Shown here piece by piece: positions 21,111 to 22,972 of a stretch of DNA of 23,726 nt (positions within the stretch are counted from its first letter, which is position 1; every line of letters starts with the position of its first letter). The stretch spans positions 1 to 23,726 of the forward strand of contig QHUQ01000022.1 in NCBI GenBank assembly GCA_003221985.1, in the 5' to 3' direction. A model generated the notes under the pieces. That model was not told where the DNA came from. It searched no databases and worked only from the letters and a program-made list of their open reading frames with translations. Position numbers and translations under genes: made by a program. Source of the stretch: Gemmatimonadota bacterium. Lineage in GTDB: Bacteria > Gemmatimonadota > Gemmatimonadetes > Gemmatimonadales > GWC2-71-9.

Positions 21111-21899
21111 CTACATCCCCTTACTCCTCAGCCACGTCAGGGACGCGTCCGCGACTTCCTTCCAGCCGTTATCGACCGTGAGTGAATGGCCGCGGTCGGG
21201 GAACACTTGATAGTCGGTCACGCTCGGCGCCTTGCGGTACAATTTGTACGCGGCGCGCGAGACAACCTCCGGCACGGTGTGGTCCTTGCCACCGCCGGTG
21301 ATGAGCAGCGGCCCGCGCGTCGCCTTGGTGTTCACCTTGGCCGGCGTGTTGGGGAAAAAGTTGGCCAACGCCGCTTCGAACAGCGGCTTCCCCGGCGCTG
21401 GGATGTGGTACCTGGCGTGCAGCGCGTTCGATTCCTGCTCGGAGAGCGTATTGCCGAAGCCGAAGTAGAACTGCTTCGGCGTTTGCGCAATCGCCTTCTT
21501 GTAATTGAACGGATTACCCAGCACCGGGAATGCGCTCTTGAGCTGCGCCAGCGGCAACGGCAGCACGCCGCGGATCTGCGCCGGATCGAGCGCCACCGCC
21601 GCGGACGCGAGTCCCATCCCCAGCAGCTTCTGTGCGACGAGCCCGCCGAACGAATGGCCGATCACGATCGGTTTTGCGGGCAGCGCGCGAATGATCTTGG
21701 CGTAATGCTCGACGACGTCATCGATCCCCACGTTGGCGAGGCGCTCCGGATGCGCGTTCGCCTCCGCGACCGTCGCCGGGTCACCCGGCCAACCGGGAGC
21801 GATAGGATCGTAGCCGGCGGCGCGGAACAACTCGACCCAGGGCTTCCAGGAATCGGCATGGAGCCAGAGGCCGTGAATGAAGACTACAGGGGTCGGCAT
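21111..21899 (-). CDS. Alpha/beta hydrolase
   Basis: Cytosolic alpha/beta-fold hydrolase of 262 residues with no leader. The oxyanion-hole motif is FIHGLWLHADSW (7-18). The nucleophile elbow is GHSFGG with Ser83. The acid is Asp206 in TGGGKDHTVP and the base is His238 in PDRGHSL, so the triad is complete. The cap region (about 120-190) is family-specific, and the substrate (an ester or lactone) cannot be told. ATG at 21899 has a GAGG ribosome site 5 bases upstream that lies inside a predicted stem (see the separate entry). It is followed after 9 bases by the broken cytochrome gene, probably on the same transcript. Confidence 0.92.
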   Translation of the reverse strand: MPTPVVFIHGLWLHADSWKPWVELFRAAGYDPIAPGWPGDPATVAEANAHPERLANVGIDDVVEHYAKIIRALPAKPIVIGHSFGGLVAQKLLGMGLASAAVALDPAQIRGVLPLPLAQLKSAFPVLGNPFNYKKAIAQTPKQFYFGFGNTLSEQESNALHARYHIPAPGKPLFEAALANFFPNTPAKVNTKATRGPLLITGGGKDHTVPEVVSRAAYKLYRKAPSVTDYQVFPDRGHSLTVDNGWKEVADASLTWLRSKGM

Positions 21900-21960: not shown

Positions 21961-22059
21961 GCGCAGGAGCGAATTGTTACAATGCCATCGACCGCACGTT
22001 GATGAGCGGTTGACGGTGCCAGTGCAACATGGGATTGACCGCGTTTCTTTGGTTTTTGG

Positions 22060-22103
22060 ACAGGCTAAAGCCTGTGCTCGGCACTCATTGTCCTAAAGGA
22101 CAA
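22060..22103 (+). repeat. REP-like double hairpin, left copy
   Basis: Two palindromes joined by a short linker. The first is ACAGGCT-AA-AGCCTGT (22060-22075), a perfect 7-base-pair stem. Then comes the linker GCTCGGCACTCA, and then TTGTCCT-AA-AGGACAA (22088-22103), again 7 base pairs. The same architecture occurs inverted on the other side of the RAYT-like gene. This is the arrangement expected of REP elements that serve as substrates for a RAYT (REP-associated tyrosine transposase). Confidence 0.8.
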
Positions 22104-22107
22104 GCTC

Positions 22108-22383
22108 GTGTCAGCGCATCAACTATTCATCCATCTCGCGTGGACGACACTCAATCGGAGCCCAATGATCGACGCGGCGACGCGCACGTTCCTGGAAGCG
22201 TTTTTCAAGAAGACTGCCGCCAAGCAAGATGTGCAAATCGCCGCGAGTCGCCAACCCGACAACGTCCTAGGCCTGCGATGGGCACCCGAGTATTCATCCA
22301 CCAGTGTGGGACCGCGACAACTCGACATTGTTCGTCAGTATCTGCGCGATCAACCCAAACATCACCCCGACGAAGCGATCTAA
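22108..22383 (+). CDS. IS200/RAYT-like transposase lacking its HUH catalytic region
   Basis: Short protein of 91 residues from GTG 22108. The N-terminal part, QLFIHLAWTTLNRSPMIDAA then LEAFFKK, matches the start of IS200-type Y1/RAYT transposases. The C-terminal part, NVLGLRWAPEYSSTSVGPRQ then VRQYLRDQPKHHPDEAI, matches their end. The two are joined near residue 47 (VQIAA|SRQPDN). In relatives about 35-45 residues lie here, including the His-hydrophobe-His pair that binds the metal. So an in-frame internal deletion seems to have removed the active centre, and the protein should not cut DNA. The full family length is about 130-150 residues. The flanking inverted double hairpins show it once moved, or served, as a REP/RAYT unit. 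The start could also be a little upstream, but GTG follows the hairpin directly. Confidence 0.8.
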   Translation: MSAHQLFIHLAWTTLNRSPMIDAATRTFLEAFFKKTAAKQDVQIAASRQPDNVLGLRWAPEYSSTSVGPRQLDIVRQYLRDQPKHHPDEAI

Positions 22384-22386
22384 GCG

Positions 22387-22429
22387 ATTGTCCTTCAGGA
22401 CAATGTCTGCCGAGCACACCCTTTAGGGT
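22387..22429 (-). repeat. REP-like double hairpin, right copy (inverted)
   Basis: Inverted partner of the left element. On the plus strand it reads ATTGTCCT-TC-AGGACAAT (22387-22404), a perfect 8-base-pair stem, then GTCTGCCGAGCAC, then ACCCT-TT-AGGGT (22418-22429). In the orientation of the left copy, the linker core GTGCTCGGCA is identical in both and the second hairpin is the same except for one loop base and the outermost pair. The first hairpin has two G-C pairs swapped to C-G with pairing kept. It starts 3 bases after the RAYT-like stop codon. Confidence 0.8.
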
Positions 22430-22448
22430 ATCCATAAAAACGAGCGAC

Positions 22449-22480
22449 GACCTAAATCTCTATGACCTACAAATCTCTAT
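22449..22480. repeat. Two-copy short tandem repeat
   Basis: GACCTAAATCTCTAT (22449-22463) is followed at once by GACCTACAAATCTCTAT (22464-22480), the same unit with two extra bases. It lies between the right REP-like element and the end of the lipoprotein gene in a locally AT-rich stretch. Probably a slipped-strand duplication; no function seen. Confidence 0.6.
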
Positions 22481-22495
22481 CCGTATTCATCCGGA

Positions 22496-22972
22496 CTACG
22501 GCGTCTCATGCCCCGCTGCATGGTGCTGCTCGCGTTGGAATTCGAGAAACTCGTGTATGGCGGCCACCGCGGCGGGATCACTCGCCCTGATTCGCACTTC
22601 CCCTCCCCATACCCGATCGATGGGCGTGTAGCTGATTTCTGCGCGTCGTGCGCTCATCACCGCCGTTCCCGGCACGTTCTGCGCGTGGACCTCGAACGGC
22701 TTCGTGAAATCACCCGCCCGAAACGCAGTCGCGATGTCGCGCATGTGCGCGCGAATCGTCTCGATGCCGGCACTGTCCGCCGTATCCACATCGAGGACCA
22801 CGCGGCCGCCGTCGGGCAGGTCCTCGAAGACATGTGTGGACGTATACTGATCGACGCCCATGACGTGTGCGCCGCGCGCTTGCATCGCGGCAAAATCGTC
22901 ACGAGCATCTTTGGAGCCCGTGCAGGCGGTCAGTACAGCAGCCGTGGCGACAACGCGAACAAAGCTCGTCAT
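22496..22972 (-). CDS. Lipoprotein of unknown function, coupled to the TMEM175-like gene
   Basis: Lipoprotein of 158 residues. The leader ends in VLTAC (Cys17). The mature part has MGVDQYTSTHVFEDLPDGGRVVL, then IRAHMRDIATAFRAGDFTKP, a VPGTAVM stretch, a SYTPIDRVWGGEVRI strand and the helical end IHEFLEFQREQHHAAGH. I have seen this layout in small exported proteins, sometimes labelled aspartate carbamoyltransferase in databases; nothing in it supports that enzyme. The several His and Met residues near H-M-R and Q-H-H could bind metal, which is a guess. The ATG at 22972 overlaps the TMEM175-like stop as ATGA, so the two are made together. Confidence 0.8.
   Translation of the reverse strand: MTSFVRVVATAAVLTACTGSKDARDDFAAMQARGAHVMGVDQYTSTHVFEDLPDGGRVVLDVDTADSAGIETIRAHMRDIATAFRAGDFTKPFEVHAQNVPGTAVMSARRAEISYTPIDRVWGGEVRIRASDPAAVAAIHEFLEFQREQHHAAGHETP

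What the first reader, a model, noticed from the sequence alone, without database searches (positions are those of the whole stretch)
22060..22429. RAYT-like gene between inverted REP-like double hairpins with compensatory stem changes
Both copies have the order hairpin, GTGCTCGGCA linker, TTGTCCT-NN-AGGACAA hairpin, and they point in opposite directions around a RAYT-like gene. In the first hairpin the stem is AGGCT/AGCCT on the left and ACCCT/AGGGT on the right: two base pairs are swapped, both with pairing kept, while the loop and linker are unchanged. This is direct evidence that the fold matters, not the stem sequence. REP-RAYT pairs are known; this double-hairpin type with a TAAA core and conserved linker is not one I can name.
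Basis: partly seen in the sequence, partly recalled or inferred. Interest (0 to 1): 0.7.

Follow-up and report, generated by a model that had tools for sequence, protein, structure and literature searches.

The report
Double-hairpin REP repeats with IS200-type transposase
A soil bacterium carries a broken copy of a small mobile gene framed by two mirror-image DNA hairpins, and relatives carry dozens of scattered copies of the same hairpin pair; this looks like a little-known branch of the REP/REPIN repeats found in many bacteria, apparently served by a different kind of transposase.

Summary
Two inverted ~48-nt arms (22057-22104 +, 22387-22434 -) frame a 91-aa ORF. Each arm is hairpin H1, tag CTCGGC, hairpin H2. 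The ORF is an internally deleted Y1 transposase: 105 bp including the HUH motif are missing in frame compared with an intact 126-aa copy in the same gene neighbourhood of a relative (MAG AG14). Four Gemmatimonadetes MAGs give 14-35 arm matches each, mostly as ~78-101-nt inverted dimers with sharp edges, i.e. REPIN-like. In 31 diverse arms all seven H1 pairs change on both sides while the T-A-A of the loop and most of the tag stay fixed. Arms co-occur with the transposase, and tag type follows enzyme clade. The transposase scores as IS200 (above cut-off), not as REP-associated transposase (below), and carries Y---Q--HH, not Y---NP. So this works like a REP/REPIN-RAYT system but is outside the GTAG/CGTC REP families and class 2 RAYTs; the nearest described enzyme group, subclass 1.2, was reported without REPs. 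Arms within a dimer usually differ in stem sequence, which permits a three-hairpin 'clover' fold. Mobility is inferred. New variant of a known kind; the window copy is a relic.

The parts
22059..22076 (+). H1 of left arm, GACAGGC-TAAA-GCCTGTG (6 pairs, outermost G-G unpaired)
22077..22082 (+). linker/tag CTCGGC (reads GCCGAG 5' of the hairpin foot on the other strand)
22087..22104 (+). H2 of left arm, ATTGTCC-TAAA-GGACAAG
22108..22383 (+). 91-aa relic of a Y1 transposase (PF01797), HUH region lost in an in-frame 105-bp deletion, Tyr helix RQYLRDQPKHH kept
22239..22240 (+). approximate place of the in-frame deletion relative to L044
   Evidence: protein alignment; tblastx segments 22108-22239 and 22240-22383
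22387..22404 (-). H2 of right arm, ATTGTCC-TGAA-GGACAAT
22409..22414 (-). linker/tag CTCGGC of right arm
22415..22432 (-). H1 of right arm, GATACCC-TAAA-GGGTGTG
21111..21899 (-). alpha/beta hydrolase gene beside the element; the same gene stands beside the intact transposase copy in L044 (90% aa identity in tblastx)

Best explanation
The window holds a decayed 'REPtron' of a REP/REPIN-like system of Gemmatimonadota: a low-copy Y1 transposase gene framed by two inverted double-hairpin REPs. Intact relatives of the enzyme most likely act in trans on single-stranded DNA, recognise the folded hairpin by its TRAA loop and the CTCGGC/GCCGAG tag at its foot rather than by stem sequence, and cut and join at the element edges, spreading 78-101-nt inverted REP dimers (REPINs) through the genome. 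REPINs were probably born from the framed gene by loss of the gene between the two self-complementary H2 hairpins. Shown: anatomy, dispersal, covariation, sharp edges, presence/absence at one orthologous spacer, co-occurrence with the enzyme, tag type following enzyme clade. Inferred: catalysis, mobility in trans, loop/tag recognition, birth by deletion. The window's own ORF should not be able to cut because its HUH motif is gone.
For: Arm matches in 4 of 4 source MAGs: 14, 35, 29, 27, against 0, 2 weak and 0 in three other genomes. H1 in 31 arms that I chose for diversity: 95.4% of cells paired, 7 of 7 pairs change on both sides, covariation 0.869 vs 0.200 shuffled and at most 0.185 slid; 149 distinct arms, both helices. 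Conservation stops at the outer TT in 164 arms. One operon spacer: element in G001 and G003, absent in G002, G052, G149, G147, G193. Enzyme at E<=1e-15: 10 of 13 such genomes have >=4 general arms, against 4 of 185 others. Tag: dispersed arms fetched from G002 and G149 are all CTC (29 of 29, 28 of 28), from G187 CCC in 14 of 16; enzymes L046, L047, L078, which lie beside CCC-type arms (one of L078's two reads TCC), form one supported clade.
Against: No excision or insertion event was seen, no cut site is known, and no insertion tetranucleotide stood out. G052 and G179 have >=4 arms without an enzyme match, and 25 of 37 enzyme genomes have fewer than 4 arms by the model; of these 25 only G017, G160 and G186 match at E<=1e-15. 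G001 has 3 CCC arms but no CCC-clade enzyme in its draft. The genomes are mostly fragmented drafts, so absences are weak. Arms were found by models built from arms, so pairing percentages lean towards the structure.
Confidence: 0.8

Rival explanations
1. An ordinary IS200/IS605-type insertion sequence and its MITE-like (palindrome-ended) deletion derivatives, not a REP system.
For: NCBIfam transpos_IS200 above cut-off for the enzyme; solved sequences matched are Y1 transposases such as ISHp608; window and L005 copies are decayed derivatives with both ends kept; the L005 unit sits about 1 kb from the window/L044 site in the same neighbourhood, as if the gene unit itself had moved.
Against: The arms are inverted, whereas IS200/IS605 ends carry hairpins on one strand (recalled). 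Enzyme matches per genome are 1-4 and divergent among the arm-bearing genomes (G149: 60, 45 and 32% identity to the same query), not near-identical multicopy as described for subclass 1.1. Dispersed units are short dimers with one shared or two adjacent H2 hairpins.
Confidence: 0.12
2. The hairpins are mainly RNA elements (terminators, mRNA stabilisers or processing sites) kept by selection on transcripts, and the transposase link is secondary.
For: Copies sit in spacers between genes, one of them directly before a short-chain dehydrogenase start; stems covary and loops are fixed, as expected for a structured RNA; 32 of 69 dimers lie inside a long open frame against 1272 of 1372 control stretches of their flanks, though the elements carry stop codons themselves.
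Against: No Rfam match at gathering cut-offs in the window or in 8 loci; presence differs between relatives at the same spacer; inverted arms frame the transposase in both window and L044; co-occurrence with the enzyme.
Confidence: 0.06
3. The 91-aa ORF is itself a functional, shortened protein (for example a DNA-binding repressor of REPIN spread) rather than a relic.
For: The deletion is in frame, the frame stays open, the Tyr helix and the last residues are intact.
Against: No protein of the same length and full coverage appears among the 71 listed relatives; the only 100%-identical entry, P0122 (72 aa), lies on a contig of the window's length. A second copy, L005, is decayed in another way.
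Confidence: 0.04

Closest known systems
REPIN/RAYT systems of Pseudomonas fluorescens (Bertels and Rainey 2011, PMC3116915; abstract start and passages seen)
   Same: Inverted REP doublets with a spacer, compensatory changes, RAYT genes beside them, two alternative folds (long hairpin and clover) discussed there.
   Different: Different REP sequence, two hairpins per REP, and an enzyme of the IS200 branch.
GTAG and CGTC REP super-families (Di Nocera 2013, PMC3733652; abstract and sections 14 and 16 read)
   Same: Short palindromes with an unpaired tag at one end; dimers; heterodimers with different stems or loops are described (P. aeruginosa GTAG-24, enterobacterial GTAG-3) and called unexplained.
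   Different: Tag is GCCGAG (GGG-type in the CCC subfamily), not GTAG or CGTC; 'Gemmatimonas', 'Gemmatimonad' and 'CTCGGC' do not occur in the main text.
TIRtrons/TIRYT genes, some with double-palindromic TIRs, e.g. in Acidobacteria (same paper, section 16)
   Same: Y1 transposase framed by long inverted repeats, some with self-complementary tracts.
   Different: 20 of 26 of them are subclass 2.1 by Quentin 2018; the TIR consensus GGGGWSAS is absent from window 22000-22500 and L044 1400-2000; the sequences of that figure were not available to compare.
TnpAY1 subclass 1.2 (Quentin 2018, PMC6006769; abstract, sections 6, 12, 15 part 1 and 31 read)
   Same: Y---Q--HH motif, close to IS200 transposases, low copy number.
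   Different: Reported as without REP and mostly in Cyanobacteria and Bacteroidetes; W motif WQ there, W[ASN] in the REP-framed Gemmatimonadota enzymes.
IS200/IS605 TnpA (IS608, ISDra2)
   Same: HUH plus one Tyr, sequence and fold.
   Different: Here the ends are inverted and are dispersed as short dimers, and the enzyme is low-copy; a tnpB partner was not searched for.

Membership tests
REPIN (works like) | two REPs in inverted orientation forming a discrete short unit, many copies per genome | tested here: met
   69 dimers in 94 loci from seven genomes; 48 of 69 are 78-81 nt and 10 are 95-101 nt; sharp edge
REPIN (works like) | REPs frame a low-copy Y1 transposase gene | tested here: met
   window, L044, L046, L048, L082 and others; no arms found near several more distant relatives (L086, L088-L105, mostly)
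REPIN (works like) | moved by the RAYT in trans | not testable with these tools
   only presence/absence at one spacer
Class 2 TnpAREP / RAYT | Y---NP catalytic motif | tested here: not met
   0 of 120 listed homologues have Y---NP, 88 have Y---Q--HH by my first pattern; of 34 loci, 23 gave an ORF with HUH and Y---[QN], all with Q, 22 ending in H (11 gave none); the E. coli rayT control reads YIYINP
Class 2 TnpAREP / RAYT | NCBIfam REP_Tyr_transpos above cut-off 80 | tested here: not met
   22.4-31.1 bits for the seven relatives scored in bits; E. coli rayT control 179 bits
GTAG or CGTC REP super-families | GTAG or CGTC tag at the hairpin foot | tested here: not met
   tag CTCGGC/GCCGAG, column counts over 164 arms
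IS200/IS605 transposase family | NCBIfam transpos_IS200 above cut-off 55, and Y---Q | tested here: met
   60.1-72.2 bits for the same seven; the window relic itself only 23.8
IS200/IS605 element | end hairpins on the same strand (recalled), near-identical multicopy IS | tested here: not met
   arms inverted; 1-4 divergent matches per arm-bearing genome
TnpAY1 subclass 1.2 | Y---Q--HH and WQ motifs | tested here: inconclusive
   Y motif met, W motif W[ASN] in REP-framed enzymes; WQ in other Gemmatimonadota and Verrucomicrobiota relatives
TnpAY1 subclass 1.2 | no associated REP (as published) | tested here: not met
   REP-like arms in Gemmatimonadota; L249 (Verrucomicrobiota, DHVH, WQ, YIKNQRQHH) is framed by an inverted double-hairpin repeat

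The most novel reading that the evidence does not exclude
REP-RAYT-like genome colonisation arose, independently of the classical class 2 RAYTs, in the IS200 branch of Y1 transposases (subclass 1.2 and kin), in at least two phyla, with a double-hairpin REP whose stems are free but whose dimer arms must differ so that the clover fold, not the long hairpin, can form for the transposase.
Probability: 0.45. Interest if true: 0.75.

Novelty: new variant of a known kind. Interest (0 to 1): 0.6.

Why it matters
Why some Y1 transposases become low-copy partners of short repeats while their sisters stay insertion sequences is an open question. An IS200-side example with its own tag gives an independent comparison, and two tag types (CTC and CCC) beside two enzyme clades make the recognition code testable. 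It also offers a possible answer to the published puzzle of why many REP families prefer unlike arms in a dimer: 138 of 138 in-silico like-armed versions fold as one long hairpin, whereas 33 of 69 natural dimers fold as a clover.

Tried and rejected
Chance matches: of 12 contigs with TGTGCTCGGCANNNATTGTCC, the 6 outside Gemmatimonadetes (Verrucomicrobia, Novosphingobium, Nannocystis, Rhizobiales, Dictyobacter, Pseudomonas) show no such hairpins beside the match and were set aside. Viral contigs: 0 matches. Weak Nannocystis-order matches: 6 of 29 genomes with one or two, and 0 of 29 with the enzyme, taken as chance. An insertion tetranucleotide: none clear. Structure as a way to tell IS200 from TnpAREP: undecided, since 29 of the 30 PDB chains with E<=0.001 are other Y1 transposases, mainly IS608 and ISDra2, but 4er8 (E. 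coli TnpAREP) has the best query TM-score, 0.73. Intergenic location: only partly informative because GC-rich frames are open nearly everywhere and the elements bring stops; a count of nearby stop codons in that call had no control and is not used. Tree with E. coli rayT: that row is a very long branch and its place is not used. Unlike arms: 3 of 61 dimers alike against 14.2 expected, 2 of 53 against 12.4 for distinct combinations, but 3 of 38 against 6.6 (P 0.047) once CC/GG dimers are left out, so part of it may be a founder effect. H2 covariation in the first 16 arms could not be tested because the search pattern had fixed H2. Rows dropped: the 4 weakest of the 175 matches were not carried into my parsing, and 7 of the other 171 were under 39 nt (164 arms); 8 of 69 dimers were left out of the arm test for unpaired stem positions; one search left out 22 of 171 matches and, for the dispersed counts, five transposase loci; 11 of 34 transposase loci gave no ORF by my pattern. 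From G149, G187, G193, G031, G147 and G052 I fetched only part of the listed places.

Full report
Observation. The window has one 51-nt inverted repeat (82% complementary, 284 nt between arms) around a short ORF. Each arm reads H1 - CTCGGC - 4 nt - H2. H1 is GACAGGC-TAAA-GCCTGTG on the left and GATACCC-TAAA-GGGTGTG on the right; H2 is ATTGTCC-TAAA-GGACAAG and ATTGTCC-TGAA-GGACAAT. No whole genome is held for the window, so relatives had to supply the rest.

The gene. The 91-aa ORF matches Pfam Y1_Tnp (E 1.2e-7). An intact 126-aa version lies in L044 (genome G002; the contig of L002, from the same genome, is titled Gemmatimonadetes bacterium isolate AG14), framed by the same inverted arms, with the same alpha/beta hydrolase on one side (90% aa identity) and the same minus-strand genes on the other (about 78% over two parts; tblastx). 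Compared with it, the window gene lacks 35 residues in frame, including THVH and the stretch after it; the Tyr helix is kept. Among the 71 listed relatives of the window ORF no other has this length with full coverage. A second decayed copy is in L005/L048: HUH kept, frame disturbed after it; it lies on the other side of the hydrolase gene, about 1 kb away in window terms.

Dispersal. An exact scan of the genome-contig collection for TGTGCTCGGCANNNATTGTCC gave 12 contigs; 6 are Gemmatimonadetes MAG contigs with 7 matches beside real hairpins, 6 are other groups without them. A covariance model of 16 arms finds 14, 35, 29 and 27 arms in the four source MAGs (105 in 67 clusters), and 0, 2 weak and 0 in three unrelated genomes. 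Only 150 candidates per genome were scored, so counts are lower bounds. Class-wide, 9 of 198 genomes at E<=1e-4. From 94 loci I parsed 164 arms and 69 inverted dimers. 48 of 69 are 78-81 nt and share one H2; 9 of the 13 in G149 are 95-101 nt, and those read there have two adjacent H2 hairpins. Conservation stops at the outer TT.

Fold versus sequence. In more distant genomes (L082, L083, L043, L080) the H1 stems are different, but the TRAA loop and CTCGGC stay (one L083 arm has TTAA). In 31 arms chosen for diversity, all 7 pairs change on both sides, 71 cells; 95.4% paired; covariation 0.869 against 0.200 shuffled and at most 0.185 slid. In 149 distinct model-found arms both helices covary (321 two-sided cells, 12 of 14 pairs; alignment fitted to the structure). 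A general H1 model (R2) rings in 18 of 198 genomes of the class, with up to 38 matches (38 is the scoring cap), and in 3 of 194 Verrucomicrobiota genomes with one borderline match each.

Link to the enzyme. Relatives of the L044 protein are in 37 of 198 class genomes. With E<=1e-15, 10 of 13 enzyme genomes have at least 4 general arms, against 4 of 185 others (Fisher P 1.3e-11); with E<=1e-3, 12 of 37 against 2 of 161 (P 2.4e-8). Genomes are related, so these P values are optimistic. Tag type follows enzyme clade: L046, L047 and L078 form one supported clade and lie beside CCC-type arms (one of L078's two arms reads TCC). G187, with L078, has CCC in 14 of 16 dispersed arms fetched, while G002 and G149 have none among 29 and 28; G003 and G004, with both enzyme types, have both tags. 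The arms were ranked by a model built from CTC arms, which could hide CCC arms in G002 and G149. G001 has 3 CCC arms without such an enzyme in its draft.

Evidence of movement. At the spacer before a short-chain dehydrogenase gene (Pfam adh_short; I take it for fabG after fabD, names recalled, the upstream piece had no Pfam match) the element is present in G001 and G003 and absent in G002, G052, G149, G147 and G193; G031 and G187 have another inverted repeat there; G004 and G106 were not resolved. Nothing more direct is available.

What the enzyme is. NCBIfam puts seven scored relatives over the IS200 cut-off (60.1-72.2 bits, cut-off 55) and far under the REP-associated transposase cut-off (22.4-31.1, cut-off 80); E. 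coli rayT (179) and ISEc46 (141.3 for IS200) behave as expected as controls. The Tyr motif is Y---Q--HH in 88 of 120 listed homologues by my pattern, and in 6 more with F after the Y; Y---NP is in 0 of 120; the remaining ones have R or another letter for the first H, or lack the C-terminal part. Quentin et al. 2018 give Y---Q for class 1, Y---NP for class 2 (the RAYTs) and Y---Q--HH for subclass 1.2, which they list as without REPs. The REP-framed Gemmatimonadota enzymes have W[ASN] rather than WQ, so I call them a neighbouring lineage rather than plain members. AlphaFold2 (mean pLDDT 83.9) gives a Y1 fold; for the undecided structural comparison.

A wider hint. L249, a Verrucomicrobiota transposase with DHVH, WQ and YIKNQRQHH, is framed by an 82%-identical inverted double-hairpin repeat with a different tag, and five short pieces of it lie elsewhere: four in the same genome and one in G419; 6 of the 8 genomes searched had none. 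Of the 6 Verrucomicrobiota loci fetched, L249 and L252 show paired flanking hairpins, L247, L248 and L251 do not, and L250 gave no readable ORF.

Clover and unlike arms. In 61 dimers with paired stems, the two arms carry the same stem dinucleotide in 3 cases against 14.2 expected. Natural dimers fold (DNA parameters) as clover in 33, long hairpin in 28 and mixed in 8 of 69; all 138 like-armed constructs fold as one long hairpin (expected by construction, but it shows what unlike arms permit). Bertels and Rainey 2011 suggested that the clover form is the one likely to be recognised by a RAYT dimer (figure legend passage), and Di Nocera 2013 found heterodimers common and unexplained. The two fit together: unlike arms may be kept because they leave the clover open. 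That link is my inference.

Mechanism, with its steps. Shown: double-hairpin anatomy, near-fixed loop and tag, free stems, discrete dimers, enzyme association. Inferred: single-strand recognition, cutting at the TT/AA edges, spread in trans. The birth of REPINs by loss of the gene between the two H2 palindromes is suggested by the identical order of parts and by the double-H2 dimers of G149, but no intermediate was caught.

Literature. In the held library, Gemmatimonad with 'repetitive extragenic palindrom' gave 3 papers, with 'REP-associated tyrosine transposase' 0, and with 'miniature inverted-repeat' 2 (titles and abstract starts seen); none of the titles or abstract starts concerns this family. 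Bertels 2017 was not held, and most subscription papers are not in the library.

Noticed in passing
L118, L119, L122, L124, L125, L137 (ends of G002 contigs): REPs whose H2 palindrome is interrupted by what look like the two ends of an IS110-family element (one end matches a plasmid-borne 'IS110 family transposase' at 69.6% identity; the other has a GIDVSKDTL start, recognised from memory, no Pfam or plasmid match). Insertion of an IS110/IS492-family element into REPs is known for ISPpu9 (PMC8450116, passages).
   Followed up: partly
L212/L218 (G031) and L214/L219 (G187), the spacer: A different long inverted repeat (GCGGATTG/AATCCGC-type in G187, a similar one in G031) sits in the same operon spacer where G001 and G003 carry the REPIN.
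   Followed up: no
L249 (Verrucomicrobiota genome G422), about 1350-2080: Transposase with the subclass 1.2 motifs framed by inverted double hairpins, 82% identical, with a few dispersed pieces; tag differs from the Gemmatimonadota one.
   Followed up: partly
L085 and L084 (G117, G034): Transposase near hairpins with 3-nt loops (CGCGGGCT-GAC-AGCCCGCG then CTCGGC), a further variant with the same tag.
   Followed up: no
L155, L157 (G003, G004): Dimers with CGTGCCC/CGTGTCC-type stems and two H2 hairpins of CGCGTCC and CGAGCCC type, distinct from the main family.
   Followed up: no
G003:C53:1037-1181: A fragment of the transposase (query positions 1-31) next to an arm: probably another decayed copy.
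   Followed up: no
L017, L022 (Nannocystis): Weak model matches containing GTCCTGAAGGAC hairpins; no related enzyme match in 29 genomes of that order.
   Followed up: partly
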